Source: Larkinella rosea
Lineage (GTDB): Bacteria > Bacteroidota > Bacteroidia > Cytophagales > Spirosomataceae
Assembly (NCBI RefSeq): GCF_003858635.1
Contig: NZ_RQJO01000010.1
Location: 682,001-746,000, forward strand
Direction: 5' to 3'
Length of the DNA: 64,000 nt
A program made the translations under genes and the position numbers. This document shows positions 1 to 64,000 of this stretch, piece after piece (the stretch's first letter is position 1; every line of letters begins with the position of its first letter). The notes under the pieces were generated by a model. It was not told the DNA's origin and did not search any database. It was given only the letters and a program-made list of their open reading frames with translations.

Positions 1-250
1 CGACCTTCAGCCAGGTAACAAACGTGAAGAAAGTCGCTAAGGTGTACAGGGTATAAAACGCATAACTCACGAACATCGATCCCCAGTAGAATCCCGGTTC
101 CGGCGTGAGCACTTCACCACAATGCTCGCAGGTTTCGTGCATTTCGTCAAACCGGCGGCTGTAGGCGCTGCTGGTAATGAAAAAGTCGCCTTGATGGCAG
201 CGCGGGCATTTATTGAATACGACACTGTATAATCGATTGTCTTTCAGCAT
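1..250 (-). CDS. DUF983 family protein (C-terminus outside window)
   Basis: The first 83 residues read from an ATG at 250 down to the window edge. Two CxxC pairs (CPRC at residues 15-18 and CEHC at 41-44) form a likely zinc ribbon, followed by a PGFYWGSM turn and a hydrophobic helix from about residue 53. This order is typical of DUF983, a small inner-membrane family of unknown function common in Bacteroidota and Alphaproteobacteria. The stop lies outside the window. A TACCTTTG box on the minus strand at 289-296 is a good -7 promoter element for this start. The family call is from memory of its pattern; no function is assigned. Confidence 0.75.
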   Translation of the reverse strand, partial: MLKDNRLYSVVFNKCPRCHQGDFFITSSAYSRRFDEMHETCEHCGEVLTPEPGFYWGSMFVSYAFYTLYTLATFFTFVTWLKV

Positions 251-288
251 GGCTCAGGTACCCACCGCATTAGTTCGTGAGTACATGA

Positions 289-296
289 CAAAGGTA
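289..296 (-). promoter_or_regulatory. Bacteroidota -7 promoter element for the DUF983 gene
   Basis: Read on the minus strand this is TACCTTTG followed by TC, matching the Bacteroidota primary sigma consensus TANNTTTG. It lies 38 bases before the ATG at 250. I do not see a convincing TTTG -33 box at the usual spacing. Confidence 0.5.
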
Positions 297-354
297 CAAT
301 GTGTTTTTTCCCAACGAAAAGACAAAACCGGATAGGTATGGTACAAATCAACGA

Positions 355-1215
355 TCAGGCCGCCGACTGACGAAATTCGGCGGGGGTCTGGTGCGTGTGT
401 TTTTTGAAGAATCGGACGAAATACGAAGGATCTTCGAACCCCAGCCGAAACCCGATCTCCTTCACTGATTGCGCCGTGTGGGTCAGCAGACGCTGGGCTT
501 CAATCACCAGTCGTTCGTGCAAAAGCTGGCTGGCGGTTTTTCCAAGCACTTTTTTGCAGATGGCATTGAGGTAATTGGGGGTCAGGTGCATTTGTTCGGC
601 ATAGGACGCCACTTCCCGAACGGTCAGAAACTGCTGCTCGAGCAATTCTTCATACTGCCTTATTCGATCGAACAGGTTAGTATCGGTTTCCGTTTGCCGT
701 TCCGTATAAAGCCGGTTGGCGGTTTCCAGAATGAGGTGGACAAACGACAGAAAAACCTCCGGACGATTGGGTTGCTGCGAATCGTATTCCTGCCAGGCAT
801 ACCGAAACAAATCCTGAAAAAGAGCCGCCGAACTGGCCACTTCCAGCAACGGCTGGTGCTGGTGCGAATGGAAGAACGGATACTGAAATAAACGATTTGG
901 AAAGCGGCTCCGGAAAAAATTCGCTTCAAAAAACAGGTTGAACCCTTCCACATCCGCCGACAACTGCCAGCTATGCACTTGCCCCGGCGTCAGAAAATAG
1001 AGCTGATGGGGCGCGATGGCGTACGTTTTGAAGTCGATCGTGTGCGTGCCACTCCCTTTAATGATCCACATCACGAGGTAAAACGTGTGCGAGTGCGGTT
1101 TATCAATGCCCTTGAATTCCTGCACCAGTTTTTCCAGGCGCGTCATGTAAAAAAGCGCGTTGGGCTCGTGCCGAGGAAAAGCCTGAAGTTTGTAAACCGG
1201 AACCGGTGAGGACAT
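355..1215 (-). CDS. AraC family transcriptional regulator
   Basis: This 286-residue protein has the usual two-part AraC layout. An N-terminal cupin-like sensor domain covers about residues 30-110, with a KPHSHTFY motif and a following APHQLYFLTPGQVHSW strand that resemble the AraC arm and cupin. The C-terminal DNA-binding domain covers about residues 190-283 and has two helix-turn-helix units; the second carries the signature IGFRLGFEDPSYFVRFFKKHT. It probably binds a small ligand and activates a nearby or distant operon. No catabolic target sits beside it, so its regulon cannot be told from this window. It is separated from the upstream NlpC/P60 gene by a stuttered-word hairpin. Confidence 0.88.
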   Translation of the reverse strand: MSSPVPVYKLQAFPRHEPNALFYMTRLEKLVQEFKGIDKPHSHTFYLVMWIIKGSGTHTIDFKTYAIAPHQLYFLTPGQVHSWQLSADVEGFNLFFEANFFRSRFPNRLFQYPFFHSHQHQPLLEVASSAALFQDLFRYAWQEYDSQQPNRPEVFLSFVHLILETANRLYTERQTETDTNLFDRIRQYEELLEQQFLTVREVASYAEQMHLTPNYLNAICKKVLGKTASQLLHERLVIEAQRLLTHTAQSVKEIGFRLGFEDPSYFVRFFKKHTHQTPAEFRQSAA

Positions 1216-1237
1216 TTTTTGGATAGGGGTTAGAAAA

Positions 1238-1333
1238 GACTATTGACGATTGACCATCGACCATTGACAAAGGGTCATAAGCTTATCATTCCTTTGTTAA
1301 TGGTCAATCGTCGGTCGTCAATCGTCAATGGTC
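1238..1333. repeat. stuttered-word intergenic hairpin (TTGACGA / TTGACCATCGA words)
   Basis: The left arm (1238-1272) is made of near-repeats of the words ATTGACGATTGACC and ATCGACCATTGAC. The right arm (1290-1333) holds the same words as reverse complements with one extra word copy. The arms pair imperfectly over about 35 bp, with a 17-base loop that itself contains ATAAGCTTAT. It lies between the stop of the NlpC/P60 gene and the start of the AraC gene, both on the minus strand. The same word family forms the hairpin at 9219-9308. Confidence 0.75.
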
Positions 1334-1338
1334 TTTCA

Positions 1339-2454
1339 TCAATTCACCACCCGCTTCACCCGTAAAAACCGGTTCAGTTCGTACGCATCAAAATTGGGTG
1401 CGGTCGGATCAACGCTGGTGATGCGGATGTGGCCGGATGAATGAATAAACTCGTTGTTACCAATCCACATTCCCACGTGCACGACGCGTTCCGGTTTATC
1501 GGCGGTGGCGGGTTCGCCAAAGAAAAGCAGGTCGCCCGGTTTGAGCGAGGCAAAGTTCTTGCCCGGTGTCGCGATTTCTTCGCCGACGTTGACCTGTTGG
1601 GAGGCATCGCGCGGCAACATCTGCCCGTTGAGCAGGTAGACGGTTTTGGTAAAACCGCTGCAATCCATGCCTTTGACCGAGGTGCCGCCCCACAAATACG
1701 GAATACCAATGAACTGTTTTGCCGTGCTCACCAGTGCATCTTCCGTTGGTTTGGCCGCTGCCTGCCAGCGATCGAACCGCTGCGCTTCCCGTTTGGCGAC
1801 AAAACCGGTCCGGCCGTCGGGATACCGCACCTGAAAATACTGCCGTTGTTCATTGAGCAAAACCAGCGTGTTTCCGGCAACGATGTCGGATACGGTCTGG
1901 GAACGTTTGTCGGCCTGGCTGTAGACAAAACCAAAGGGGCGCGTAAAAATGATTTTTTCGGCCGACTGCCACTGTTCAAAGTCGGTTTTGGTCATGAGTT
2001 GAATGGCTCCCGCATCCGTCCAGGCAATGTATTGGTCGGGCGTTTGAACTTCGTACCAACTCCGATCTTTGTCCCAAACCTTCAACGGCATTCCCAACAA
2101 TGCCTGCGTCGACAATTCGGCGGCATTGCGGGCATTCGAACGCAGATTGGCGACCGACACATTGACAATCGCGTAGATTTTCTCCCCCAACGACGACGCG
2201 GGCAGCAATTGAATCTGATCGACAACGGCCCGATCGGCGGCTTTGAGCTGGGCAAGTAGCGCCTGTTTGGCTTCCGGCAAATTCGTAAAACCGGTTAGCT
2301 GTCCCGACGAATCAGCTTCCACGTTGAAGATCGCTACCCGCTTATCCGGCGCATACTGCTTCCGAACGGCATCGACAAATTGGCTGAGGGATTGCGAAAA
2401 ACCGTCGGCAGCAATCATATAGAGTAATAAAAAACTGATACCCGTTCGTTTCAT
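1339..2454 (-). CDS. secreted NlpC/P60 endopeptidase with SH3-like domains
   Basis: I start this gene at 2454, 20 codons inside the longest frame, because translation then begins with MKRTGISFLLLYMIAADGFSQ, a good signal peptide. The middle (about residues 115-235) contains two bacterial SH3-like segments. The C-terminal NlpC/P60 domain has the catalytic cysteine in GMDCSGF (residue 265) and histidines in VVHVGMW (326) and FIHSSG (338). Such enzymes cut the gamma-D-Glu-diaminopimelate bond of cell-wall peptides in the periplasm. The product fits the L-Ala-D/L-Glu epimerase at 9319, which processes the dipeptides released. A TACCTTTA box near 2476-2482 on the minus strand may be its -7 element and supports the shorter start. 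Confidence 0.9.
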   Translation of the reverse strand: MKRTGISFLLLYMIAADGFSQSLSQFVDAVRKQYAPDKRVAIFNVEADSSGQLTGFTNLPEAKQALLAQLKAADRAVVDQIQLLPASSLGEKIYAIVNVSVANLRSNARNAAELSTQALLGMPLKVWDKDRSWYEVQTPDQYIAWTDAGAIQLMTKTDFEQWQSAEKIIFTRPFGFVYSQADKRSQTVSDIVAGNTLVLLNEQRQYFQVRYPDGRTGFVAKREAQRFDRWQAAAKPTEDALVSTAKQFIGIPYLWGGTSVKGMDCSGFTKTVYLLNGQMLPRDASQQVNVGEEIATPGKNFASLKPGDLLFFGEPATADKPERVVHVGMWIGNNEFIHSSGHIRITSVDPTAPNFDAYELNRFLRVKRVVN

Positions 2455-2688
2455 GGTGCTTTTTAACTCGTCACTAAAGGTACTCCCCCGGTTTTTCGAT
2501 CTAAATACCGACATTCCCCGGATTCTTTCAGGAATTCAAATTTAGTAAAATCAGAAGTAATGCGGGATTAATCAAAGGACGGGATTTTTATAATTCGCCG
2601 TCGGAGATGGTTTTCCCTTCAGCAGGGCAGAAAACCGATGCCAGGTTTGCTCCATCACGAAAAGGATAAAAACCTGATAGACAAACCG

Positions 2689-3252: not shown

Positions 3253-3278
3253 TTGTTACGCGCAAAATTCCGTAACAA
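3253..3278. promoter_or_regulatory. inverted repeat touching the start of the four-helix membrane protein
   Basis: TTGTTACG and CGTAACAA form a perfect 8-bp inverted repeat with a 10-base spacer, ending directly at the ATG (3250-3252, minus strand). In RNA it would place a hairpin against the start codon; in DNA it resembles a dimer operator. The two cannot be told apart here. Confidence 0.4.
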
Positions 3279-3339
3279 GATAGAAGTTATATTCGAACAA
3301 TGCCTGCTAAAACGCTAATTAATAATCAGTTGTACCAAC

Positions 3340-4899: not shown

Positions 4900-5093
4900 T
4901 GTATTGAAAAATAGATTCAGAAGGTAAACGAGTAAGCGTCATCAGGAGTTTAAAAAGACGGTTTTTTCCCTGAATTCGGCAAATAAATCTGGAAATCGGG
5001 CAGAAAGCACCCGGTAAAATACGGGAAATACCCCATGTTATTTTATTCCTCCTCTGTTGACCTTAGCGAAAAGTTTACTCCCCTCCTCGCTTC

Positions 5094-5843: not shown

Positions 5844-5885
5844 CAAGCCGTTGGGAAAGCAATGCAATTGAACTTTCTTATCAAT

Positions 5886-5905
5886 TTTAATGTATATACA
5901 TTAAA
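5886..5905. promoter_or_regulatory. perfect 20-bp palindrome upstream of pirin gene
   Basis: TTTAATGTATATACATTAAA is identical to its own reverse complement over 20 bases and ends 27 bases before the pirin ATG at 5933. Its size and AT-rich symmetric form suit a dimeric repressor operator of the MarR, HxlR or TetR kind. No regulator gene lies beside it, so the protein that binds is unknown. Confidence 0.5.
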
Positions 5906-5932
5906 TGTTGATACTCTTAAACTCGGAATAAA

Positions 5933-40700: not shown

Positions 40701-43700
40701 CCGACACCTGACCGCTTTCGTTCTGTTCATTGTGCATATGAATGAACATCTTCAGGCGTTCCCGAAACAGCAGATCGGTATTGGTGTTTTTAAAAGCCGC
40801 CCGCGAATCGCCATCGCGCAAATTCGTGACGCTCAGGCTCATCGACTGCTCATTCAGCTCCACCTGGTTGATCTGCGTAAAATCACGGTCACGCTGAAAA
40901 CCGGGGGGAACTTTGTACACGTATTTGTTAGTACCCGGGGCGCTGTTCTCTTCAATGTTTACCGCCGTCACCTTAAACTGCGCATCATAGGGTTCCGGCA
41001 CTTCCTGCAAGCCCCGGGCCGACAGATCGCCGGTGTATTTCCGGTATTGGTTGGAGGTCATCTGCAACTGCGCAAACCGCAACACAACCGGTTGTTCAAA
41101 ATCCGTCAGGTACATCCGCGCAAACCGCATGGATTTGAACCCGTTGATGTTGCCGACTTTCTTCGGATTATCGCGCACCGGAACCCGGAACAAATACCAG
41201 GTTACCGCTTTTCCGGCTTTGGTCTGCACGTCCACTTTATCGACAATATAGCCTTTCCCAACCGCCAGCTGACCCGGTCTCAGGTCGACTTCGTATTCGT
41301 AATAGGCTTCGTTGTCGTTGATGGTATTGTCGGTGTTCAAGTCTTCAATGTCGGGCAAGGTCGTCGATGCGGGGGTCACCAGCTGGTTGCGGTCCTGCAA
41401 CTCGGGCGAGTTGTTTTCCATCCCCATGTATTGTTTATACCGACTGACAATGTGCTGGACGGAATCGGCCCGCTGGCCGTAGTAGAAAATAAAGTCATCG
41501 TTGGCCGGATCACTCAGCAGCCGTTCACGGGCCACCGCGTTCAGTCGGGGCGAAACCTGATCGATGTAACTCTTGAAAAACCGGTTTTCTTCGCGGTTAC
41601 TCAACCCATCCAGACCGACATCCTGCTGCGGCCGGGCGACGTTATCGAAAGCCTGGGTCACAAACTGCGAACGCGTGACACGCCCCCAGGCTGTTGAGTC
41701 GGGAGACAGGCCATTCGGAACCGATAGACCATTTTCAAAACCGTACCGACCGTCTTTGATCACGTCTTCCGAAAGGTCGCCGAGGTTAAACACCAGTTTT
41801 CCACCGGTGGAGTTGGGCTTGTTCTCGAAACCGTCGTTAATCACTGCATATTTGGCATCCGTTGGTCCTAAAAAGGGGTCCATCAACCAGAATTCGATGT
41901 TTTCGATGTTGGCATTGTCAAAATCCGCATCCGACGAAATGGCGCGCATCACCGAACCAAAGTTCTTTTTCGGATCGCCAGCCAGCCGCCCATCCGCCGT
42001 CAGGTTCGGGTTGAAATTATACATCCCGCGCTCCCGTGGGAAATAGGCAACGTCCAGAATGTTTTCCGGCAGGTTGACCAGTCGCGCCGAACGCCCTTTG
42101 AAGAGTTCGTTGGAAAGGAAAAACTGCTCGTAAAAATTCTTTAGATCTTCGTCCGTCAACGTACTCTGCGGCACCCGGTTATTGGCAATACCAGTCGATG
42201 TGCTGAAGGTGTTATCCACCGTATAGACCGAGATCCGGGCGCGGTTGTAGGCAAACGCCAGCGGTTCGGCAAATGTCCCCTGCGGAAAAGCCCGCTCCGG
42301 CGTCGTTGGAGTCGAGCCCAGCCGCCAGCGGGTCGGTTGGCGGGTCAGGTCATAAAGGGTTCGGGCAGCTTCGAAGTCGTCGATGAACGCATTGTTGTTC
42401 ACCCGCGGAGCCACACCGGGAAACAACTGCGCCACTTCGCCCTGAAACGCAATGCTCGACAATTCCTTGGTTTGAATCAGTGGCAGGCCATCGAGCAGCT
42501 TGGTTAAAAACCGCGAATCTTTCCGGATGGTGGCGTCAAAACCCAGAATGGTGTTGTTCACCGGCTCGTTGCCAATGGCGACGCGCGTCAGGAAACCGGC
42601 CGGGGTTTCCCGCATGTTCATGGCGGTCATCCCGATGTTCACTTCCGGACTCATTTTGTAGTCCAGACGCGTCCCGACCAACCGCCGGATCTGGTTCTGG
42701 AACAGATCCGGCCGCTCGTATTTCACCTTGATTTCCTGGCCCGAGTTCATCATGCTCTCGTTCAGGAAGCGAACCCGGCCAATCTGCGACTCGACCACAA
42801 AGTCGGTTCCGGGCGACAACGGCACTCCGCCCGCCGTTACCTGCACCGATTTTTCGTCGACACCATACGGCAAGGTCACCTCGCCCGCCGTGGCCGACTG
42901 GTAACTGCCTTTCAGGAAAAATTTATTCTTACCCGCCACCTGCTGGGCGTCGACCAGGGTGTTGCGGTACAACTCATTGTAGACGTACTTGGCCTGTAAG
43001 GCGTCATTCTTCAATTGGTTGGCCAGATACGATCCGAAGGGTTCCAGAACCGGGAAAATAACCCGGCCATAGCGACTATCGACCGTGACGCCTTCAATGT
43101 AATCGAAATTACCGTCCTTCTGCGGATCGAGCTGGGCGTTCACCTGGTCCATGTTGAACACCTGAACGAGTGGAATGTCCTTCACACCACCCGGTCCTTC
43201 TTGCAAATTCGGGTTATCGATCCCGGTCAGGTCGTCCTTGTAAATGATCCGCAGCTGAAAATTCTGTTTGTTGATCTGGGTGGTGTTGAGGGAATAGATG
43301 TTTTTCATCATCAGATTCCACATCGGCAACTGCGTGTTGTTCCGGATCGTTGCCGACTTCAACAGCTTCAGAATCAGCACTTCGTTATCCTGGCGGTTTT
43401 GGTAATCTTCCGTCAGTTCCCCCACTTTGTATTTTCGCCCCTGGTAGGTATACTCATAGGAAACGGCCAGCACTTCGTCGTTGCGCAGGGGCGTTACCAG
43501 CGAGATGTAGCCCAGTTCCGACTGAAATTTATACTCGGTTTCGGTCAGGCGTTTGGCCCCCCGCAGCAGTTCATAATCGATTCCTTTGGCAAACCCGAAG
43601 GTTCCATCCAGCAAAAAACCGGCCTGATCGACCTGGCGGATGCCCGTATTGGCAGACACTTTGGCAAACAGACCGTTGCCGGTCGCATTGTCTGCGGCAG

Positions 43701-45207
43701 CGTTGGCATCCGGGTTAACGGGCTGCACGTTCGGATTGGCGGTGTTGTAAGGTCGTGGTTCGCCCAGGTCCGCAAAACCGACGATGTTCCGCAGGGTCGT
43801 CGTGGTATTGGTCCGGTTGGTCACGTATACTTCTAAACGCGTAATCGTAACCCCCGACATGATCTGGGGCAGGCGTTTCAGCGACCGCTCGTAATTGTTA
43901 CGGAAAAACTGCGACAGGAAGAAGTGGCGGTTTTCATCGTAGGTATCGACGCGGATTTCGTAATTTTTCTGCAGATTACCGCCTTTGATGGTGATTTCCT
44001 CCTGCTTCGAACGCTGTTGGGAAGCCACCAGCGTAGCGTATAATTTCCCAAACCGGAGCTGGGTTTTCACCCCAAACAGGTTCTGCACACCCGGAATTAA
44101 CTGGCTGCTGAGCGGCCAGCTGATGTTACCGGCTTCCAGGCCCTGAATAATGCTGGGATCCTGCGGTTGAAACGGCGGAACCGTTGGCTGCATCAGACTG
44201 CCCGTCGATGGCAATCCATTGGGCAAACCGCCCGGGCTGGGCAAACCGGGCAGTCCGCTGGTCAGGCCATTTGCATTGGGCAGGTTCGGAACCGGAGGAC
44301 GGTAATTCAGTTTCAGGACATTCTCAAAATTGAAACTGGATTTGGTATCGTAGTTGGCCGTTACGCCCAACCGTTCCCCAATCTTCCCGTTGAAGTTGAT
44401 GTTGATCTGTTCGTTAAAGATAAAATTCCCGTTTCGACGCTGCAAAACCGGGATAATGGGGTTATCGATAAACTGGTAGAGATACCCGAAATCGAGCATC
44501 ACAAACCCATTCGGCTTGAAATCGACCAGATTCCCGCCAAACAGGCGATCGAAAACCGGCGGCAGTTCCAGCTTCGGCAGCAGGCCCCGGCCACTGACAG
44601 CGCTTTGCCCGTCCGTACGCGCGCTGTATTCCCGCCACAAACTTTTTTGAACACGTTGGTTCTGTAAGCGGTTATAGTCTCCGTAGGACATGGTCTCGGC
44701 CGGCCGGTAGGGCAAACCCGGCGAGGGTCGGGTCGGCGAACCCGGAATACCCGGTGTTGGAGCAATGGCACCCGTCGTAGCTGCGGGTAGTGTGGCGGTT
44801 GCCGATGTGGGTCGCGATGATTCCGGTTGGCCGCCGATTCGTTCCAATACCGAAATCTGATCAGGACCATTGAGCTGTACTTCGGTGGAAACCGCCCGCG
44901 GATCGCGCAGTAAAAAAGGGGATTTGGGGGTAACGACGGAAAACGGGCTCACGTACCGGTCCCGCCAACGGATAATGGGTCGGCGCTCCGCCGAACGGGT
45001 CGCCCGAATGCTGTCCTGACGCGCCCGCGCAATGGAGTCGGCCAATGACACAGGGCGCCGACGGGCGGGAGTTTGCGCGGCTACCGGGTTCATCCAGGTC
45101 GATCCTAATATTAACGCACACAACACAATCAGCCCAGGCCCAAGCCGGTCATATACTAACCTCAGCCGGGTCAATCGGTGGGACTCAACACATTCCAAGA
45201 GAAGCAC
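37702..45207 (-). CDS. sprA: type IX secretion outer-membrane translocon SprA
   Basis: This 2501-residue protein is the largest gene of the window. A long N-terminal signal (about 22-45, ending NPVAAQ) is followed by an Arg/Pro-rich stretch, the SprA N-terminal domain (YLYQFIDNPIIPVLQRRNGNF, INLNFNGKIGERLGVTANYDTKSSFNFEN) and several thousand bases of repeated barrel strands and plug segments, ending in VRFNLAE. SprA (also called Sov) is the 36-strand channel through which type IX cargo crosses the outer membrane; it is also needed for gliding. A Pro/Gly/Leu-rich insert (about 305-345) looks like a local expansion. The gene lies between ruvA and a barrel protein. No cargo gene with a recognisable C-terminal secretion domain is in the window. 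Confidence 0.96.
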   Translation of the reverse strand: MLLLECVESHRLTRLRLVYDRLGPGLIVLCALILGSTWMNPVAAQTPARRRPVSLADSIARARQDSIRATRSAERRPIIRWRDRYVSPFSVVTPKSPFLLRDPRAVSTEVQLNGPDQISVLERIGGQPESSRPTSATATLPAATTGAIAPTPGIPGSPTRPSPGLPYRPAETMSYGDYNRLQNQRVQKSLWREYSARTDGQSAVSGRGLLPKLELPPVFDRLFGGNLVDFKPNGFVMLDFGYLYQFIDNPIIPVLQRRNGNFIFNEQININFNGKIGERLGVTANYDTKSSFNFENVLKLNYRPPVPNLPNANGLTSGLPGLPSPGGLPNGLPSTGSLMQPTVPPFQPQDPSIIQGLEAGNISWPLSSQLIPGVQNLFGVKTQLRFGKLYATLVASQQRSKQEEITIKGGNLQKNYEIRVDTYDENRHFFLSQFFRNNYERSLKRLPQIMSGVTITRLEVYVTNRTNTTTTLRNIVGFADLGEPRPYNTANPNVQPVNPDANAAADNATGNGLFAKVSANTGIRQVDQAGFLLDGTFGFAKGIDYELLRGAKRLTETEYKFQSELGYISLVTPLRNDEVLAVSYEYTYQGRKYKVGELTEDYQNRQDNEVLILKLLKSATIRNNTQLPMWNLMMKNIYSLNTTQINKQNFQLRIIYKDDLTGIDNPNLQEGPGGVKDIPLVQVFNMDQVNAQLDPQKDGNFDYIEGVTVDSRYGRVIFPVLEPFGSYLANQLKNDALQAKYVYNELYRNTLVDAQQVAGKNKFFLKGSYQSATAGEVTLPYGVDEKSVQVTAGGVPLSPGTDFVVESQIGRVRFLNESMMNSGQEIKVKYERPDLFQNQIRRLVGTRLDYKMSPEVNIGMTAMNMRETPAGFLTRVAIGNEPVNNTILGFDATIRKDSRFLTKLLDGLPLIQTKELSSIAFQGEVAQLFPGVAPRVNNNAFIDDFEAARTLYDLTRQPTRWRLGSTPTTPERAFPQGTFAEPLAFAYNRARISVYTVDNTFSTSTGIANNRVPQSTLTDEDLKNFYEQFFLSNELFKGRSARLVNLPENILDVAYFPRERGMYNFNPNLTADGRLAGDPKKNFGSVMRAISSDADFDNANIENIEFWLMDPFLGPTDAKYAVINDGFENKPNSTGGKLVFNLGDLSEDVIKDGRYGFENGLSVPNGLSPDSTAWGRVTRSQFVTQAFDNVARPQQDVGLDGLSNREENRFFKSYIDQVSPRLNAVARERLLSDPANDDFIFYYGQRADSVQHIVSRYKQYMGMENNSPELQDRNQLVTPASTTLPDIEDLNTDNTINDNEAYYEYEVDLRPGQLAVGKGYIVDKVDVQTKAGKAVTWYLFRVPVRDNPKKVGNINGFKSMRFARMYLTDFEQPVVLRFAQLQMTSNQYRKYTGDLSARGLQEVPEPYDAQFKVTAVNIEENSAPGTNKYVYKVPPGFQRDRDFTQINQVELNEQSMSLSVTNLRDGDSRAAFKNTNTDLLFRERLKMFIHMHNEQNESGQVSAFIRLGTDFTDNYYEIEIPKLVNTRDGNLPDDEVWPAANDLDIAIDELINLKAEKNRQFTRTSAQPFSMLSLDGRYNLTVVGNPDLSAVQVIMIGVRNPKSPDEQAKSFTIWVDEFRANGFDQTAGRAAVGVLNAKLADVATVTASGKITTFGFGGVQQRIAERSRETSTEYGIQSQISVDKLLPEKWGLRIPLFVNYDKRLIQPHFNPLDPDTPLETTLSTLNENEREKYRRLVEDNSVRRGFNLSNLRKVKTNPNARNHFYDVENLAFTYAFNEATRTNILTEQFVQKQTRGSLAYVYSAQPKPFEPFKQFQSLERPYLRWLKDFNLTLLPTQVSIRGEVDRSFVKTQLRNSELTTAGMVPQFEKYFWFNRDYNLQWNLTRNLILTYRAHTNAIIDEPAGDLNTQAKIDSVWANAKRFGRTKNYEQDIRTTYRMPLDKLPLLDWIAADLTYNINYQFQANSFGITDTLNVPFGNIIRNSRDWGVQGRVDFIRLYNKIKSLRFANTPSVPRKNFTRNPGDVEDIQRTESRLLKSFVRTLLTIRGINFNYTVQESTILPGFLPTPRFFGLSRENAPGLPFVLGSQDRNINRKAAERGWLSKSTVLNQPFTQTRGVKFDARTTLEPFKDFRITVEARLTRQDSYQETYRVDTVGGSFRSLSPYRNGQFSMSFLSFKTAFSKLNKDNSSPIFDKFAEYRKIILNRLIRDNPASGNGGQYNLTSQDVLIPAFFAAYSGKDPNTVKFNPFLRFPLPNWRIDYNGLSQLNGFKKLFSAFTLTHSYNSTYSVGNFTSSLDYESAYVNLAVMGYPLASRYNTQFQYVPIFVMSTITMTERFAPLVGVTFRTQSKISGGLEYNQDRSVALNLSNAQVAELSNKDITFRFGFTKTNFKIPFKINGAYKRLKNDLTFNCNLTFRDTRTVQRKFDDSSVSAPTSENGVGEQIITAGNVNFQLRPQVSYVVSRRLNVQVYFDRTFNDPLVSNSFRRATTAGGVQVRFNLAE

Positions 45208-46181: not shown

Positions 46182-47762
46182 TTACCCTACAATCAAGCGC
46201 TGGCCGGGCTTGAGCGAATTTCCTTTAATTTTATTCAGTTTTTTCAATTGATCAACGGTCAGGTCGCTGTAGCGCTGCGAGATATTCCAGAGGGTATCGC
46301 CATCCTGAACCCGGTGGTATTTGGGTTTATACGTTTTGGTGCGTTTCGCAACTTCCGGTTTGCTGCTGCGGTTTTTTGTCGATTTGGCCAGACGGCTGGC
46401 GGTTTCCGGTGCGGGCGTTTCGCGCAGGATCACCAGTTTCTGCCCCCGCTGGATGCGGGTTGAACGCAGATGGTTCCATTTTTTCAGGTCGTAAACGTCC
46501 ACATCGTATTTCTCGGCAATCCGCGAAAGCGCTTCCCCTTTTTTGACGACATAAACTACTTTTTTGGGGTTTCGCCGGACAACCTTCTCAATATCATCAT
46601 CTTCCGATGAAATGGCATTGGCCGCTACGACGGGCTGAGATTCCCGCGCCTGTTCTTCATTGGCGTTCGTAAACGGAAAATAATCCCGTTTTTTGGAGGA
46701 GTCTGACGTATAGGTTACGCTTTCGGTCGACGCCAGTAGCATATTGGTCGAAAGCGAGGGCGTGCGCCCGGCCGAATCGAGAATGGCGCGACGGTTGGCG
46801 GCAAAATAATCAAAATGGGCCTTCGGAACGCGAAGCACAAAACTGCGGGTTTGGTCCGACAAAATACCGGTCATAATCGACGGATTCATTTTCTGTACCT
46901 CGGCCAGCGGCACCCCGCTGTATTGGCAAAACCGCTCGATCGACAGATAACCGTTCACGTGAATGGTATCGCAGGGAATAGGGTATTCAGGTTGTTCAGC
47001 GTAAATCCCGTGGTCGTTGGCGTAGTTCATCATGTAGGTCAACGCAATGAACTGCGGCACATAGGCGCGGGTTTCTTTGGGCAGAAAATTGTAGATCGTC
47101 CAGAAAGAGTCGCCCCCGGAACGTCGCATGGCGCGTTTCACCGTTCCCGGCCCGCTGTTGTAAGCCGCCAGTGCCAGGTGCCAGTCACCAAATATCCGAT
47201 ACAGATCTTTCAGATACCGACAGGCCGCATCCGTCGACTTCACCGGGTCCATGCGCTCATCAATGTACTCATCCTGATACAGTTTGAAGTCCGCGCCCGT
47301 ATACGGCATGAACTGCCACAAACCGCCTGCACCAACGCGCGAAACCGCTTTCGGGTCGAGCGACGACTCCACGATTGAGAGGTATTTCAGTTCGTCGGGG
47401 ATTTCGTGCTGCGCCAGCAGGCGCTCATACAAAGGGAAGAACATCGGCATCCGTTCCATTACCTTTTTGGTATAACTCGGACGGCGGAATGTAAAATAAT
47501 CGATAAAACCGTGGACGGTTTTGTTGTAATTCAGGGGAATGCTCTGCTCCAGTTTGGCCAGTCGATCACGCAGAACGGCTTCCGGAACGGACAAAATATC
47601 CGGAACATCCACTATTTCAATCGGTTCCTGGGTTGTGTCGGCTCTGACTCCGTTGGTGTCGGCCTGAAAATAGGCTCCCCAACTGTGGGGAACAATGCAA
47701 ACAAAGATCAGTACGGTGCAAGCCAATCGGAGGCCGTGAAGGGTCGTCTTCAGGTTCGACAT
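46182..47762 (-). CDS. LysM-type membrane lytic murein transglycosylase (MltD-like)
   Basis: The 526-residue product has an N-terminal signal (about 8-30), a transglycosylase SLT domain (about 110-270) with the catalytic Glu132 in SIVESSLDPKAVS, then GAGGLWQFMPYTG and LALAAYNSGPGTVKRAM, and two C-terminal LysM modules (about 403-446 and 480-526) that bind glycan. It resembles E. coli MltD and cleaves peptidoglycan strands with 1,6-anhydro product. It may help make room in the cell wall for envelope machines; here it is the gene before ruvA and sprA. No lipidation cysteine of the LxxC type is obvious near the signal end. Confidence 0.93.
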   Translation of the reverse strand: MSNLKTTLHGLRLACTVLIFVCIVPHSWGAYFQADTNGVRADTTQEPIEIVDVPDILSVPEAVLRDRLAKLEQSIPLNYNKTVHGFIDYFTFRRPSYTKKVMERMPMFFPLYERLLAQHEIPDELKYLSIVESSLDPKAVSRVGAGGLWQFMPYTGADFKLYQDEYIDERMDPVKSTDAACRYLKDLYRIFGDWHLALAAYNSGPGTVKRAMRRSGGDSFWTIYNFLPKETRAYVPQFIALTYMMNYANDHGIYAEQPEYPIPCDTIHVNGYLSIERFCQYSGVPLAEVQKMNPSIMTGILSDQTRSFVLRVPKAHFDYFAANRRAILDSAGRTPSLSTNMLLASTESVTYTSDSSKKRDYFPFTNANEEQARESQPVVAANAISSEDDDIEKVVRRNPKKVVYVVKKGEALSRIAEKYDVDVYDLKKWNHLRSTRIQRGQKLVILRETPAPETASRLAKSTKNRSSKPEVAKRTKTYKPKYHRVQDGDTLWNISQRYSDLTVDQLKKLNKIKGNSLKPGQRLIVG

Positions 47763-52349: not shown

Positions 52350-52560
52350 GAAAGTCGGAAGCTAGTTGGTACTATTTTGGCGGATTTACTCCTATTGACT
52401 GAAATTTATCAGCCGATCTTCGTCAAAATCCGCCAGACAACCCAAAGTAACTAACAAATAAGTTTAATAACTAATTTATTAGTTATTCTTTTCACTAAAA
52501 AGCTTACTTCTTTCTGATGATATTTGTTTTTTGCTACCAAATCGGCCCATCCTGACCTTT

Positions 52561-55371
52561 ATGAAGTTAGTTTGCCATTGCCTTTTCTATTTTTTGCTGC
52601 TCAGCTTGAATGCCTGGGCCGTCAAAAACGCCCCTCCCACGCTAACCCGACTCCGGTGCGACTACCGTGATAATCCGCTGGGTATCGAGCGTCGTCAGCC
52701 CCGGTTAAGCTGGCAGCTGGTGTCGGATATTCGGGGGCAAAAACAAACCGCCTACCGGATTCTGGTGTCCGATAATCCAAAGTTACTAGCGGCCAATCAG
52801 GGCGATTTCTGGGATTCGGGCAAACAGGTTTCCGACCAGTCCATTCAGGTGGTTTACGAGGGAAAACCGCTGCGGGCCAGTCGGCTGTATTTCTGGAAGG
52901 TGCAGACCTGGGACAAGGACGGCCAACCCTCGGCCTGGAGTAAAACCGCATCCTGGCAAATGGGTTTGCTGACGCCAGCCGATTGGGGAAAGGCGCAGTG
53001 GATTGCCCTGGAAGACCTGCCCGCGTCGGAGCGAATTGTTCCGTTTGTTCACAATCCCGTGTCGAAAAAACCGCTCGGAGACCGGAAATCGGCGCAGAAC
53101 GCACTGCCGCAATTCCGCAAAGAGTTTACGCTAAAAAAACCGCTGAAACGGGCCACCGCCTTTATTTCTGGTTTAGGTCATTATGAATTGAGTCTCAACG
53201 GACAGCGGGTGAAAGATCACTTCATCGATCCCGGCTGGACCAATTACGACCAATACGCCCTGTATGCTACCTACGATTTGACGCCCTCACTCGCTAAAGG
53301 CACCAATGTGGTAAGCGTACTGCTCGGCAACGGTTTTTACAACATTCCCGTGGAGCGATACCGGAAAATTGTGGGCTCGTTTGGTTATCCGAAACTGATT
53401 TGCAAGCTCCAGCTGGAATATATCGACGGCACGCAGGAAGAAGTTGTTACCGATCAGTCCTGGAAAGTAACCAAAAGTCCGATCACGTATTCCAGCATTT
53501 ACGGCGGAGAAGACTGGAATGCCACGCTGGAGCAGACCGGCTGGATGTCAGCCGGTTATGATGATTCGAACTGGCAAATCCCGCTCGTCGTTCAGGGGCC
53601 GCCCCGGTTGCATTCGCAAACCGCTCCGCCCGTAAAAATCATGGAAACGTTTGCGCCCGTGCGGATAACGGAGCCGAAAGCGGGTATTTTCGTTGTCGAT
53701 CTGGGACAGAATATGTCTGGTATTCCGCAGATTTCGGTACGGGGAAAAACCGGCTCGGTCGTCAGAATTACACCCGGCGAATTGCTGGGCAACGATAGTC
53801 TGGTGACCCAGCAGGCCACCGGCGATCCGCATTTTTATCAATACACGCTAAAGGGAAGCGGTACCGAAACCTGGCAGCCGCGCTTTACGTACTACGGTTT
53901 TCGGTACCTGCAAATTGAAGGAGCGGTTCCCGATCAACGTTTGGTCAGTACGGTTTCAAACCCGCCAGGCGATTTACCGGTGCTGACCGCCGTGAAAGGG
54001 TTGCACATCCGGGGTTCGGCCGAAACCGTCGGGACGTTTTCGTGTTCGAACGAGCTCTTCAACCGCATCGACCGACTGATTGACTGGGCCATTAAAAGCA
54101 ACATGGTCAGCACGTTAACGGACTGTCCGCACCGCGAAAAACTGGGCTGGCTGGAAGAAACCCACCTCATGAGCGGTTCGGCCCGCTACACCTACGATCT
54201 GGCAACGCTATTGCCAAAAATTATCCAAGATATGCAGTCGGCACAGCTGGCAAACGGCCTGATTCCGGACATTGCGCCGGAATACACTGCTTTTGTGAGC
54301 GGTTTTCGCGATTCGCCCGAATGGGGCAGCGCGGGGGCGATTCTTCCCTGGTATACGTACCAATGGTACGGCGATAAAAGCATTCTGCTGGACAGTTACG
54401 ACATGATGAAAAAGTACGTAAACTACCTGGGGACCAAAGCCAGTGACCACATTCTGACCCACGGATTGGGCGATTGGTGCGATCTGGGGCCAAAACCGCC
54501 CGGCGAATCGCAGCTGACGCCGAAAGGCATTACAGCGACGGCTACGTATTACTATGACCTGACGATTCTGGAAAAAACCGCCCGTTTGCTCAGAAAAACC
54601 GCCGATGCCGATCACTATCGCCAACTGGCCGAAAGCGTCAAACAGGCGTTCAACAGAAAATATTACGATGCAGAGAAAGGCTACTATGGCTCTGGGAGTC
54701 AGACCTCTAACGCCATGCCGATTTACATGAATCTGGTGACGCCCGAAAATAAAGCCGCTGTTACGGCGAGTTTGCTGAAGAGTCTCCAAGAAAACAACTA
54801 TAGCCTGACGGCGGGCGGCATCGGGTTCCGGTATCTGCTGCTGGCGCTGACGAAAGTCGATGCGTCGGACGCCATTTATGCCATGAACAACCGCTCGGAT
54901 GTGCCCGGCTACGGTTACCAACTGGCCCACGGCGCCACCGCACTGACCGAATCCTGGCCCGCGCTGCGGTTTGTATCCAACAATCATTTCATGCTCGGGC
55001 ACCTCATGGAATGGCTCTACAGCGGTCTGGGTGGCATTCAGCAGGACGAAAACGTGCCGGGTTTCAAAGCCATCGTGATCAAACCGGAGGTGGTGGGCGA
55101 CATCACGCACACCAACGTTCGGTACGTTTCGCCCTACGGCCCGATCCGGAGCGAATGGAAGAAAACCGGTTCGCAACTCGAGCTAACGGTGAGCATTCCG
55201 GCCAACACAACGGCAACGGTTTTTCTGCCGGCATCGACTGCCGACCGGATTTCCGAAAGCGGAAAATCGCTTGAAAACCGCAATGACATCAAGGTTCTTC
55301 GGACTGAAAATGGCAAATCCGGGCTGGGCATTGGCTCGGGGACATACGTATTTTCGGTGAAGGGACAATAA
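52561..55371 (+). CDS. alpha-L-rhamnosidase, GH78
   Basis: The ATG at 52561 gives a signal peptide (MKLVCHCLFYFLLLSLNAWA); the frame opens 10 codons earlier. The 936-residue product follows the GH78 plan: an N-terminal fibronectin-like domain (LRCDYRDNPLGIERRQPRLSW), the carbohydrate-binding beta domain (ALFISGLGHYELSLNGQRV-like), and the (alpha/alpha)6 barrel with TLTDCPHREKLGWLEETHLM, where the acidic catalytic residues lie, and RFVSNNHFMLGHLMEWLYSGLGGI; a final beta domain follows. It removes terminal alpha-L-rhamnose from plant polysaccharides or glycosides in the periplasm. Neighbouring GH2 and GH36-like genes suggest a shared substrate. Confidence 0.94.
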   Translation: MKLVCHCLFYFLLLSLNAWAVKNAPPTLTRLRCDYRDNPLGIERRQPRLSWQLVSDIRGQKQTAYRILVSDNPKLLAANQGDFWDSGKQVSDQSIQVVYEGKPLRASRLYFWKVQTWDKDGQPSAWSKTASWQMGLLTPADWGKAQWIALEDLPASERIVPFVHNPVSKKPLGDRKSAQNALPQFRKEFTLKKPLKRATAFISGLGHYELSLNGQRVKDHFIDPGWTNYDQYALYATYDLTPSLAKGTNVVSVLLGNGFYNIPVERYRKIVGSFGYPKLICKLQLEYIDGTQEEVVTDQSWKVTKSPITYSSIYGGEDWNATLEQTGWMSAGYDDSNWQIPLVVQGPPRLHSQTAPPVKIMETFAPVRITEPKAGIFVVDLGQNMSGIPQISVRGKTGSVVRITPGELLGNDSLVTQQATGDPHFYQYTLKGSGTETWQPRFTYYGFRYLQIEGAVPDQRLVSTVSNPPGDLPVLTAVKGLHIRGSAETVGTFSCSNELFNRIDRLIDWAIKSNMVSTLTDCPHREKLGWLEETHLMSGSARYTYDLATLLPKIIQDMQSAQLANGLIPDIAPEYTAFVSGFRDSPEWGSAGAILPWYTYQWYGDKSILLDSYDMMKKYVNYLGTKASDHILTHGLGDWCDLGPKPPGESQLTPKGITATATYYYDLTILEKTARLLRKTADADHYRQLAESVKQAFNRKYYDAEKGYYGSGSQTSNAMPIYMNLVTPENKAAVTASLLKSLQENNYSLTAGGIGFRYLLLALTKVDASDAIYAMNNRSDVPGYGYQLAHGATALTESWPALRFVSNNHFMLGHLMEWLYSGLGGIQQDENVPGFKAIVIKPEVVGDITHTNVRYVSPYGPIRSEWKKTGSQLELTVSIPANTTATVFLPASTADRISESGKSLENRNDIKVLRTENGKSGLGIGSGTYVFSVKGQ

Positions 55372-57440: not shown

Positions 57441-59867
57441 TTACCGCACAGAAACCGTAATCTCCCCCGCCAGCAAACCCGGCGCCGTGGCCTTCAACGT
57501 CAGGATTCCCGGTTTGCCATTCGGGCGCAGAATCGCCAGACAACGGCCCCGGAACGTTGATTTTTGTGGTTTCTGAAAACTGCTCAGATCCGTCGGATTG
57601 GCGTTGCCGACCCCCGCCAGCTGGCCTTCCCCGCTGAACTGAAACGAAACCGGAACCGCTGCCGACGGAATCCGATTACCGTTTTCATCGACCACCTCCA
57701 CGGCGACGTACGACAAATCGTTGCGATCGGCGCGGACGACCGAACGGTCGGCTTTGAGCCGAAGACGATGCGGTTTTCCGGCGGTCTTCAGCTCAACCGA
57801 ACCGACTGGTTTGCCGTTTTCAAAACCGGTTGCTTTCAAAACACCCGGCTGATAGGGAACCGTAAATGTGGCCGTAACAGACGTGTCCGGTATCGTTTGC
57901 TCACCGATCACTTTCCCGTTTAACTCCAGTTTTACCAACGGACTGCGCGAAAAAACCCGCACCTGCAGCGGTTGTCCTTCCGCGCCCGCCCAGGTCCAGC
58001 TCGGCTGTTCGTCCGGCCAGCCCCAATTGGTGACGGTTTCTTTCATGCCGGCCGGAATCGGGCTGTGCACTGCCAGTTCGATTGGACTGTTCCGCCAGAC
58101 CACATCCCGGTAATGCGACTGCGGTTTTTTGAAACCGATCAGGTCGAGATCCCCGCAATAGGCGTTGAACCACGGCCACGGAAAAACCGCAATCGTGCTG
58201 TCTTTGTCGGTTTTCGGCTGCAAAAGCGAATGCCCGATGGCGGTTTCGCCCATGTAATCCATCGCCGTCCAGACAAAATCACCGATGACATAGGGGTGTT
58301 TTTCCACCATCTGCCAGTTCTGGAAAGCTTCTTTGGCGAACGTTTCCGTTCCGACCATCACCCGATCCGGATGGCGCTGGTGGTCCGATTCGTAATTTTT
58401 CCACTCGTAATTGTAACCGCCAATGTCCAGCAGCGCGAAAGCCGGGTCGGAGTCGGTCCAGACCTTGCCGGGATGTTCCCAAAACACGCAAAGCGCTTCC
58501 GTTACGGGTCGGGTGGGGTCCAGCCGACGGGCTTCCTCGGTCAACTTTTTCGTGATGGCCAGCCCCGACGGTTCGGCGCGTTCGTTGATTTCGTTGCCAA
58601 TACTCCAGATCACCACCGACGGATGGTTGCGGTCGCGGTGAATCATGGCCTGCAAATCCCGCTGCCACCATTCATCGAAAAACCGGTGGTAATCCTGCGG
58701 TTTTTTGGGCCGCTGCCACATGTCGAACGCTTCGTCGATGACGAGCAGCCCCAGCCGGTCGCAGGCATCCAGAAACGCCGTCGACGGTGGATTGTGGCTC
58801 GTCCGAACGGCATTGAATCCGTTGGCTTTCAGGAGTTCCACCTTGCGTTCCTCGGCCCGGTCGATGGCCACGGCACCCAGCGGCCCGTTGTCGTGGTGAA
58901 CACAACCGCCTTTCATCAAAAACCGCTTCCCGTTCAGCAGAAAACCGGTTTGGGCACTGTAGGCAATCGACCGGATGCCGGTGGCCGTCGTCACGCTGTC
59001 GAGCCGTTTTTTACCGGCAAGAAGCACGACTTTGGTTTGGTACAAGCGGGGCGTCGCGGGCGACCAGCGTTGCGGATTGGCAATCGTAATCAGTTGCTTT
59101 CCCTCAGTTTGTCCGTTGGCTCTTACGGTAATCGTTTGCTGATTTTTGCCGACGGTTTTCCCATTCGGCGCGATCAACGAAGTTTGTAAAGTGATTGGAA
59201 CCGGTTTTCCGGACGGGTTTTCGACAGTGGTAACAACCTGTATCTGAGCGGCTTTCTCGGAAACCTGCGGTGTGGTAATCGAAATACCGAAAGGTGCAAT
59301 GTGAACCGGTTCGGCAACGGTCAGCCAGACGTGCCGGTAAATACCCGAACCGGTGTACCAGCGGCTGTTTTTGCCGCTATTTTTTACCCGAACCGCCAGC
59401 ACATTTTCCTGCCCCGGCGGCAGCAAATGGGGTGTCAAATCGTAAAAAAAGGGCGTATACCCGTACGCATGGTAGCCCAGGTGATGCCCGTTCAGCCAAA
59501 CGTCGGTTTCCATGTGAACGCCATCGAAATAAATGGATACGGTTTTCCCTTTTTCAGATGGACCGATTTTGAACGCCTTCCGGTACCAGCCCGTGCCGCC
59601 AACCGTATAACCGGTGGATGTGGCCCCGACGCTGGCCCGCGAAAACGGCCCGGCTACCTGGTCCGGGCTTTGGTTCGGCAGATCTTCGATGCTCCAGTCG
59701 TGGGGTAAATCGAGTTTTCGCCAGCTGGCGTCGTTGAAGTCGCGGCTTTCGGCGGTTACGGTGCTGTCTTTCAAAAACCGCCAGTCCGCGTCGAAAAGCC
59801 GGGTTCGTGATTGGGCGAAGGCGTGGATTGTAGACAGAAAACTACAGGTTATTAGTAGAAATTTCAT
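57441..59867 (-). CDS. beta-galactosidase family GH2 glycosidase
   Basis: The 808-residue product has a signal peptide (FLLITCSFLSTIHAFAQ). Domain order is GH2 sugar-binding (WRKLDLPHDWSIEDL, VWLNGHHLGYHAYGYTPF), Ig-like, (beta/alpha)8 catalytic (GGCVHHDNGPLGA, NAVRTSHNPPS, VIWSIGNEINERAEPSG, with the acid/base Glu in GNEIN, and the nucleophile Glu in GTETF) and a C-terminal beta part that ends early, near LRLKADRSVVRADRNDLSYVAVEV. Such exported GH2 enzymes remove beta-linked galactose or related sugars. It follows the GH36-like gene across a 33-bp perfect hairpin. Confidence 0.93.
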   Translation of the reverse strand: MKFLLITCSFLSTIHAFAQSRTRLFDADWRFLKDSTVTAESRDFNDASWRKLDLPHDWSIEDLPNQSPDQVAGPFSRASVGATSTGYTVGGTGWYRKAFKIGPSEKGKTVSIYFDGVHMETDVWLNGHHLGYHAYGYTPFFYDLTPHLLPPGQENVLAVRVKNSGKNSRWYTGSGIYRHVWLTVAEPVHIAPFGISITTPQVSEKAAQIQVVTTVENPSGKPVPITLQTSLIAPNGKTVGKNQQTITVRANGQTEGKQLITIANPQRWSPATPRLYQTKVVLLAGKKRLDSVTTATGIRSIAYSAQTGFLLNGKRFLMKGGCVHHDNGPLGAVAIDRAEERKVELLKANGFNAVRTSHNPPSTAFLDACDRLGLLVIDEAFDMWQRPKKPQDYHRFFDEWWQRDLQAMIHRDRNHPSVVIWSIGNEINERAEPSGLAITKKLTEEARRLDPTRPVTEALCVFWEHPGKVWTDSDPAFALLDIGGYNYEWKNYESDHQRHPDRVMVGTETFAKEAFQNWQMVEKHPYVIGDFVWTAMDYMGETAIGHSLLQPKTDKDSTIAVFPWPWFNAYCGDLDLIGFKKPQSHYRDVVWRNSPIELAVHSPIPAGMKETVTNWGWPDEQPSWTWAGAEGQPLQVRVFSRSPLVKLELNGKVIGEQTIPDTSVTATFTVPYQPGVLKATGFENGKPVGSVELKTAGKPHRLRLKADRSVVRADRNDLSYVAVEVVDENGNRIPSAAVPVSFQFSGEGQLAGVGNANPTDLSSFQKPQKSTFRGRCLAILRPNGKPGILTLKATAPGLLAGEITVSVR

Positions 59868-59960: not shown

Positions 59961-59972
59961 CAATTTACTTTC

Positions 59973-62324: not shown

Positions 62325-62348
62325 GCATCCCTGAAATTGAAATGAGGT

Positions 62349-63292: not shown

Positions 63293-63329
63293 AGGTACGC
63301 AATCGATGCGGGTGACGTGTTGCGTACCT
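63293..63329. repeat. perfect 10-bp hairpin with repeated AGGTACG words
   Basis: AGGTACGCAA (63293-63302) and TTGCGTACCT (63320-63329) are exact reverse complements with a 17-base loop. A similar word ACGTGCTGTAGGTACGAC occurs earlier at 63231-63248 and GCGTGCCGTCAGGTACGC at 63283-63300. It lies between the two minus-strand SRPBCC genes. Confidence 0.6.
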
Positions 63330-63374
63330 ATTTACATCAACACCAATTGACACGTTACCGAACAGATCCGAAAC

Positions 63375-63824
63375 TCAGGCCTGGCTCACCAGATTCGGCT
63401 GCCCGACCCCGGTTGTGATCCAATTCTGTAAACTTCCCAGGTAAAACCGCCAGCCGCTGGAACAGTCGTTAAAACATTCAATTCCGGGCACCAGGCCCAG
63501 GTGCGTGAAGAGAATTTGGGTTTGGGGCCCGACGGTGGAAATCTCAAAATGGATACGGGTGCCGGTCCACTCGCTTTTGTCCTGCAGGAAATTCAGCTGG
63601 CTGTCCGTCACCAGCCAGCCGATTTGCTGATCCGGGATGACCTCGACCAGTTTCTGGCGGGAATAATGCACATCGCCGAACCGGACCGAAAACTCGTCGT
63701 TCAGCTTCTGGGAGTCGCCTTCAAAATCTTCGGACCACCAGCCGCGAACATCATTGATGGCCTTGAAAACTTCGCCCGCCGTTTGGTCAACCAACAGGGT
63801 TTTGGTGAAATCAGATGTTGTCAT
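63375..63824 (-). CDS. SRPBCC (AHSA1-type) domain protein
   Basis: The 149-residue protein starts at 63824 ([19 protein letters not shown]), because the -7 box at 63852-63859 lies between it and an upstream in-frame ATG. It is a single SRPBCC domain: [67 protein letters not shown]. It is a close match to the first domain of the 62349 gene. Members of this group respond to or bind hydrophobic ligands; the function is unknown. It is divergent from a GlxA-type regulator gene, which may control it. Confidence 0.88.
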
Positions 63825-63851
63825 TGTTGATTTGTTGTCAAATTTGTCCTG

Positions 63852-63859
63852 CAAATGTA
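63852..63859 (-). promoter_or_regulatory. -7 promoter element of the SRPBCC gene
   Basis: On the minus strand this reads TACATTTG, matching TANNTTTG, 27 bases before the ATG at 63824. Confidence 0.55.
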
Positions 63860-63911
63860 TGGTCTTATTTGTACTTCGAGAGGGTGTAAAATGGACTTTG
63901 TAACGGGTTGA

Positions 63912-63939
63912 TTTGGACGCAATCGAATGACTATCTTTG
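63912..63939 (+). promoter_or_regulatory. promoter of the GlxA-type regulator gene
   Basis: TTTG at 63912-63915 and TATCTTTG at 63932-63939 are 16 bases apart; the ATG follows at 63953, 14 bases from the -7 box. Together with the -7 box at 63852 this makes a compact divergent control region. Confidence 0.55.
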
Positions 63940-63952
63940 AGAAAAAAAGCCG

Positions 63953-64000
63953 ATGAAACAGTTGACGATCATTGTTCCGGACGGACAGAGCAACCTGAGC
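63953..64000 (+). CDS. GlxA family AraC-type transcriptional regulator (N-terminus only)
   Basis: Only the first 16 codons lie in the window: [16 protein letters not shown]. The opening strand and the PDGQSNLS turn are typical of the DJ-1/PfpI-like sensor domain of Bacteroidota GlxA-type AraC regulators. The divergent position next to the SRPBCC gene is the usual arrangement for control of a neighbour. The rest of the gene is not visible, so this is a tentative call. Confidence 0.5.

What the first reader, a model, noticed from the sequence alone, without database searches (positions are those of the whole stretch)
1..64000. The heptamer AAAACCG/CGGTTTT is hugely over-represented across the window
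I counted by hand: about 10 copies in 1-2650, 14 in the GH78 gene (52561-55371) and 13 in the GH2 gene (57441-59867), both strands together. Length alone predicts one per 8.2 kb (2 in 16384), so the excess is about 30-40 fold. In GH78 it occurs in all three frames (for example AAA CCG, AAA ACC G, GAA AAC CGC, GGT TTT CGG), so one codon pair cannot explain it. In the GH2 gene both orientations are about equal (7 and 6). This density exceeds that recalled for known uptake or Chi-like words.
Basis: partly seen in the sequence, partly recalled or inferred. Interest (0 to 1): 0.72.

Follow-up and report, generated by a model that had tools for sequence, protein, structure and literature searches.

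The report
Larkinella's genome-wide seven-letter DNA word
A seven-letter DNA word occurs about once every 420 bases across this bacterium's genome, far more than its proteins, codons or base composition explain; all nine sampled species of its genus share the excess and compared species tend to keep the same copies, which suggests that some unidentified cell machine reads it.

Summary
AAAACCG/CGGTTTT occurs 196 times in the window and 19,544 times in the 8.17 Mb Larkinella genome; the reversed word occurs 2,984 times. Shuffles keeping protein and codon usage give 48 against 170 in the window's ORFs; shuffles also keeping every dinucleotide give 432 against 1,328 in 524 ORFs. Intergenic density is at least as high. 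Samples of all 9 Larkinella genomes are enriched over shuffles; 12 Spirosoma loci are not. The word is AAWACCG with a nearly strict CCG core; AATACCG is the relatively stronger form in four species. Copies are kept between own and L. terrae beyond codon expectation (82 of 123 against 45). Where one species lacks a copy, the change can be at any of the seven positions, arguing against a one-substitution mutation bias. Spacing is random; no strong strand bias was seen. The closest analogues, Neisserial uptake sequences and cyanobacterial HIP words, reach similar densities, so 'exceeds known words' is wrong. Best guess: a self-recognition word spread by biased uptake or recombination (0.4). No reading protein was found; Chi-like or HIP-like origins remain open.

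The parts
1..64000 (.). 196 copies of AAAACCG (104 on +, 92 on -), about one per 327 bases, in coding and intergenic DNA
1..2650 (.). 11 copies (7 + / 4 -); AraC-type regulator (355-1215) and NlpC/P60 (1339-2514) ORFs
   Evidence: Pfam
52531..55371 (+). GH78 alpha-L-rhamnosidase ORF; 14 copies (10 + / 4 -) within 52561-55371
   Evidence: Pfam
57441..59867 (-). GH2 ORF with 13 copies (6 + / 7 -)
   Evidence: Pfam
37702..45207 (-). 2501-aa ORF used to name the genus and, with others, to align Larkinella species
46182..47762 (-). LysM/SLT transglycosylase ORF used as synteny anchor in the 9 Larkinella genomes

Best explanation
AAAACCG is the main form of a genus-wide DNA word of Larkinella, AAWACCG, with a nearly strict CCG core, a graded A/T tail and A avoided just after it. 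A cell component recognises it as DNA in either orientation. Shown: the excess is at DNA level, concentrated in one genus, beyond codon and dinucleotide effects, with copies retained between species. Inferred: its spread comes from a fixation bias for segments that carry the word, most likely sequence-biased uptake and/or recombination of conspecific DNA (uptake-sequence-like self-recognition). Repeated replacement by word-bearing segments would sprinkle copies at random wherever protein function permits, let the preferred form drift between species (AATACCG against AAAACCG), and let copies decay in lineages where the bias weakens. The reader protein is unknown.
For: Whole genome: 9,738 + 9,806 against a reversed-word control of 1,501 + 1,483. 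Own ORFs 1,328 against 432 +- 16 (12 shuffles keeping protein, codon usage and all dinucleotides); Spirosoma loci 89 against 85. Synonymous-shuffle fold in samples (100-633 kb) of 9 of 9 Larkinella 2.1-3.7; Spirosoma loci 1.1, G010 1.0, G025 1.2, G036 1.8. Intergenic 2.82 per kb against coding 2.42. Near-exponential spacing (CV 1.05), neighbour orientations 294/292/285/267. Near-uniform over ORFs (chi2/df 1.10, 492 ORFs). Retention: own-terrae 192 of 276 (96 shared sites, each counted from both sides) against 830 of 1,986 for permuted words; codon-matched 82 of 123 against 45.2 expected, z 7.1. Mismatch positions spread 13,8,4,9,4,11,5. Two forms: whole-genome AATACCG 5,061 and 5,934 in arboricola and knui against 3,990 in own. 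The 20-kb stretch L005, with a tape measure protein and T6SS- and Pycsar-related domains, has 12 copies where about 48 are expected. A ComEC-type competence protein is in 9 of 9 Larkinella.
Against: No uptake, recombination or binding was tested. PilT, the usual retraction ATPase of type IV pilus uptake (recalled), gives no match in 9 of 9 Larkinella. ComEC is in all 15 genomes searched, so it does not explain genus specificity. No excess of close inverted pairs, the arrangement seen at Neisserial terminators. The fall from the exact word to its one-base neighbours is shallow, whereas passages in PMC1939737 report 82- to 92-fold drops for uptake words, though with longer words and another null. 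Intergenic retention was not above control (10 of 19 against 38 of 79). In the punicea/humicola/C7 trio copies are being lost on balance, and loss and gain ratios there are close to those of permuted words. Permuted words were also retained slightly above codon expectation (362 against 319, z 3.1). One sister genome (G036) shows a weak 1.8-fold excess. Only one motif-poor island was seen, and it is also low in GC.
Confidence: 0.4

Rival explanations
1. Chi-like word: AAAACCG regulates an AddAB/RecBCD-type nuclease and marks self DNA, so copies are selected everywhere.
For: Short, non-palindromic, genus-centred, dense word. Chi differs between species (statement seen in PMC3630211). Retained sites.
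Against: Known Chi words usually favour the leading strand (recalled). Here 737 copies lie on the G-rich strand and 806 on the C-rich strand of 62 10-kb windows (binomial p 0.08; Spearman -0.32, p 0.011): a slight lean the other way. GC skew is weak here, so this proxy is weak too, and replichores were not mapped. AddAB/RecBCD was not searched.
Confidence: 0.2
2. HIP1-like ratchet: an orphan methyltransferase together with mismatch repair favours mutations that create the word, so it accumulates without function of its own.
For: Density and clade-wide spread resemble HIP words. A published model explains such words as a possible by-product of repair (PMC4390886 passages).
Against: The word is not palindromic. 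PF01555 methyltransferases do not track it: none in terrae or knui, only a sub-cut-off match in own. Other methyltransferase families (PF00145, PF02384, PF02086, PF07669) were not searched.
Confidence: 0.2
3. Binding site of an abundant nucleoid or chromosome-organising protein, kept by selection.
For: A/T-tolerant tail plus nearly strict CCG core looks like a protein footprint. Retained copies.
Against: Spacing is random, no phasing. Copies are about equally dense in genes and between them. Copies are lost on balance in one clade. Why selection should act on some 20,000 sites is unclear.
Confidence: 0.13
4. Context-dependent mutation or very-short-patch (Vsr-like) T:G repair bias producing CCG after A-runs.
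For: Enrichment is graded around the word (AAACCG 2.6-fold, AAAACCG 3.7-fold). A Vsr homologue is in own, punicea and soli.
Against: The T-bearing precursors AAAATCG (1.10) and AAAACTG (1.16) are not depleted. Mismatches facing non-shared copies are spread over all seven positions. Vsr gives no match in 6 of 9 Larkinella.
Confidence: 0.05
5. Codon usage, amino-acid pairs or base composition alone.
For: Codon usage itself raises the expectation (270 in 409 kb of ORFs). Markov models of order 4-5 come near the window's count.
Against: Both shuffles leave a 3- to 3.7-fold excess in own. All six frame-orientation classes are enriched and intergenic DNA is as rich.
Confidence: 0.02

Closest known systems
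DNA uptake sequence (DUS) dialects of Neisseriaceae
   Same: Highly iterated, non-palindromic, coding and intergenic, similar top density, 3-base core required with graded influence of the bases around it, lineage dialects, suggested decay when specificity is lost (PMC3630211: passages, section)
   Different: 7-8 bases rather than about 10; in Bacteroidota; no PilT found; no excess of close inverted pairs; uptake untested
HIP1 and related highly iterated palindromes of cyanobacteria
   Same: Genome-wide word at about 1-2 per kb, clade-wide with exceptional variants (PMC4390886: passages; section)
   Different: Not palindromic; no methyltransferase linked; PF01555 does not track it
Chi sequences
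   Same: Short asymmetric over-represented word that differs between lineages
   Different: No strong strand bias by GC-skew proxy; nuclease not examined

Membership tests
DNA uptake sequence (DUS/USS) | Far above chance in the genome, beyond codon effects | tested here: met
DNA uptake sequence (DUS/USS) | Both orientations, coding and intergenic | tested here: met
DNA uptake sequence (DUS/USS) | Clade-specific forms (dialects) around a constant core | tested here: met
   AAAACCG and AATACCG proportions differ among the 9 species; CCG kept in both forms, with only a mild excess of AAAACCA
DNA uptake sequence (DUS/USS) | Preferential uptake of DNA carrying the word | not testable with these tools
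   needs cultures
DNA uptake sequence (DUS/USS) | Type IV pilus machine, tested by its PilT ATPase only | tested here: not met
   TIGR01420 no match in 9 of 9 Larkinella; ComEC-type PF03772 present in 9 of 9; other pilus parts not searched
DNA uptake sequence (DUS/USS) | Close inverted pairs (terminator-like) | tested here: not met
   no excess of close inverted pairs in 1,138 gaps of 464 kb; terminators themselves not mapped
HIP1-type word | Palindromic octamer | tested here: not met
   AAAACCG is asymmetric; the merged palindrome AAAACCGGTTTT occurs 99 times in the genome
HIP1-type word | Clade-wide orphan methyltransferase for the word | tested here: inconclusive
   PF01555 does not track the word; other families not searched
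Chi | Strand bias with replication | tested here: inconclusive
   737 against 806 by a weak GC-skew proxy; replichores not mapped
Chi | Alters AddAB/RecBCD activity | not testable with these tools
   biochemical
Vsr / mutation-bias word | T precursors depleted and enzyme present wherever the word is rich | tested here: not met

The most novel reading that the evidence does not exclude
AAWACCG is the first self-recognition (uptake- or recombination-steering) word in Bacteroidota, read by a receptor that does not need a PilT-driven pilus, that shifted its preferred form within one genus and lost strength in one of its clades.
Probability: 0.28. Interest if true: 0.82.

Novelty: new variant of a known kind. 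Interest (0 to 1): 0.62.

Why it matters
As far as I recall, few bacterial lineages are known to carry a short word at more than two copies per kilobase, and the known cases (uptake sequences, HIP words) exposed or hinted at mechanisms of DNA exchange or repair. Here nine sampled species with graded strength, two forms and net loss in one clade give a natural series in which the driver can be sought by comparing gene content and tested in cultured environmental bacteria.

Tried and rejected
Codon usage and codon pairs: rejected by two kinds of shuffle. Markov models of order 4-5 come near the count (112 and 169 of 196) because they contain the word's own 5- and 6-mers; judged uninformative. 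Vsr-like repair: rejected. PF01555 methyltransferase as driver: does not track the word. Strong strand bias: not seen, by a weak proxy. Regular spacing or close inverted pairs: absent. A first trio count with a majority base per column gave 59 losses and 18 gains (permuted words 798 and 628); against a trinucleotide-context expectation the loss ratio was 0.67 for the motif and 0.79 for permuted words, the gain ratio 0.67 against 0.68, so turnover there is near neutral. The tip-only recount gave 91 sites in three species, 48 in two and 31 in one, against 757, 577 and 955 for permuted words, Fisher p 7e-5 for 48:31 against 577:955. Both point to net loss; I rely on the second. ORFs were called by longest open frame, not by a trained gene finder. 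One soli locus (L118) was dropped because it overlaps later stretches. 'Spirosoma' means 12 loci of 27 kb around one gene. Literature: the word itself was found in 2 papers whose titles are unrelated, its complement in none; searches listed no report of such a word in Larkinella (listings only; one search found no paper).
Full report
What was checked. Within the 51 ORFs of at least 80 aa, 170 copies stand against 48.4 +- 5.6 when synonymous codons are shuffled inside each gene (200 shuffles, maximum 67), and 25 copies lie in 5,847 intergenic bases. Length alone gives 25-fold, a first-order Markov model about 7-fold, the codon-aware control about 3.5-fold; Markov models of order 4 and 5 come near the count because they hold the word's own pieces.

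Whole genome and genus. The window lies in a genome of 8,174,678 bases. The word occurs 9,738 + 9,806 times there, one per 418 bases; read backwards it occurs 1,501 + 1,483 times. Seven named Larkinella loci are the best matches to the window's 2501-aa ORF (81-90% identity). In one search (59 genomes) the 9 same-genus genomes, own included, have 0.78-2.39 per kb; the 28 genomes of other genera in the family and the 22 of the order have at most about 0.45 per kb. In 296 genomes drawn from the phylum, own included, the highest other density is about 0.77 per kb (G064), so the poorest Larkinella (L. soli, 0.78) only equals the richest outsider, while own stands three-fold above it. In that scan some outsiders also exceed their reversed control about four- to six-and-a-half-fold (e.g. 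G059, G073, G098) at 0.5-0.6 per kb; the reversed word is a rough control.

What the word is. In 464 kb of own sequence (386 ORFs) AAAACCG is the top 7-mer over synonymous shuffles (992 against 270 in coding, 156 in 55 kb intergenic). Of the 21 one-base neighbours, CAAACCG (2.6), AATACCG (2.3) and ATAACCG (2.2) are clearly raised, six more are raised 1.3- to 1.8-fold, G at positions 2 or 3 is lowered (0.67, 0.70), and changes within CCG are near 1 (0.76-1.24) except AAAACCA (1.41). A is avoided at the next base (0.10 against 0.25); beyond one base upstream and two downstream the flanks are flat. Across samples of the species the AAAACCG fold is 3.7 own, 3.5 terrae, 3.1 knui and punicea, 2.9 humicola and C7, 2.3 arboricola and soli, 2.1 G001; AATACCG is the larger fold in knui (3.6), arboricola (2.8), G001 (2.8) and soli (2.7). 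Whole-genome AATACCG counts are 3,279-5,934 in the 9 Larkinella and 127-1,946 in the 14 other genomes searched. A stricter shuffle that keeps protein, codon usage and every dinucleotide (12 shuffles) still leaves 3.07-fold in own, 3.02 in terrae, 2.07 in arboricola, 1.75 in soli and 1.04 in the 12 Spirosoma loci. One sister genome, G036, shows a weak 1.8-fold excess over the plain synonymous shuffle (42 against 23).

How it is laid out. Gaps between copies are near-exponential (mean 388, CV 1.05) except for gaps under 7 bases; neighbour orientations are equal. Counts per ORF are almost Poisson (chi2/df 1.10 over 492 ORFs); 5-kb windows range from 2 to 24 copies (125 windows, variance/mean 1.49). 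Orientation against GC skew: 737 copies on the G-rich and 806 on the C-rich strand of 62 windows (p 0.08; Spearman -0.32, p 0.011); skew is weak, so this is a weak proxy for replichores. The poorest 20-kb stretch, G000:C10:1-20000 (L005), has 12 copies where about 48 are expected and carries a tape measure protein, an NS-type endonuclease, a Tdi1-type immunity domain and a Pycsar effector domain, at lower GC: a foreign-looking island poor in the word.

How it evolves. Own against L. terrae over 53.8 aligned kb at 85% identity: 96 shared sites, that is 192 of 276 counted from both sides, against 830 of 1,986 for permuted words. Predicting retention from the same codons outside the word, 82 of 123 coding copies are kept where 45.2 are expected (z 7.1); permuted words give 362 of 873 against 318.7 (z 3.1); intergenic copies show no difference (10 of 19 against 38 of 79). 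Single mismatches facing a copy are spread over the seven positions (13, 8, 4, 9, 4, 11, 5) and many base changes. A one-substitution mutation bias would concentrate them; recognition of the whole word would not. In the closer trio punicea/humicola/C7 (74 kb) copies shared by three, two and one species number 91, 48 and 31, against 757, 577 and 955 for permuted words: relative to controls this clade loses copies on balance, in line with its lower density (1.7-1.8 against 2.4 per kb).

ComEC-type PF03772 is in 15 of 15 genomes searched, 9 of 9 Larkinella, so uptake is possible but not genus-specific. PilT TIGR01420 gives no match in 9 of 9 Larkinella and none over its cut-off in the 21 genomes searched. 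Vsr is in 3 of 9 Larkinella, 6 of 23 genomes. PF01555 methyltransferases are patchy: none in terrae and knui and only a sub-cut-off match in own. No protein was identified; AddAB/RecBCD and other methyltransferase families were not searched.

Judgement. That the word is a DNA-level feature of Larkinella, favoured as a whole by something that recognises it, I hold at about 0.85-0.9. Which machine does so is open; uptake or recombination bias fits the two forms, the three-base core, the random sprinkling and the loss in one clade best (0.4), with Chi-like and HIP-like readings next. Density is not a record: kingDUS of K. oralis is as dense. It is not filed as a member of the DUS family: uptake is untested, and the PilT and inverted-pair features were tested and not met.

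Noticed in passing
whole own genome; G000:C10:11656, 14925, 21744 among the 16 survivors: CGCCGC is almost absent: 16 copies in 8.17 Mb; in 464 kb at 50% GC, 3 against 371 expected in coding, and CGCCTC 1 against 142. The 9 Larkinella have 7-121 copies each, two other genera of the family (G010, G012) 8 and 11, the other 18 relatives searched 21 to 7,227. Near-lethal avoidance of CGCCKC/GMGGCG, like an unprotected restriction target; three survivors lie in the first 22 kb of C10, two of them inside the foreign-looking stretch L005.
   Followed up: partly
12 Spirosoma loci between L030 and L093; G025: Another word, ACGTAGC, is over-represented in the Spirosoma loci (111 against 29 by synonymous shuffle, ACGTAGCA 36 against 5) and in one family genome of unnamed genus, G025 (3,135 against 882 reversed): possibly each genus has its own word.
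   Followed up: partly
G000:C10:1-20000 (L005): Low-GC stretch with tape measure protein, NS endonuclease next to a Tdi1-like immunity domain, a Pycsar effector domain and a PAS histidine kinase; poor in AAAACCG.
   Followed up: partly
G011 stretches L149-L153: GGTACC is 4.4-fold over a first-order Markov expectation, unusual for a palindrome.
   Followed up: no
own 464 kb: Palindromes GCCGGC, CCGCGG and CTGCAG are depleted about four-fold over synonymous shuffle, and similarly in terrae and the Spirosoma loci.
   Followed up: no
G000:C10:751135-751347: A Vsr endonuclease gene in own, punicea and soli but with no match in the other six Larkinella; a weak PF01555 match lies about 13 kb away.
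   Followed up: no
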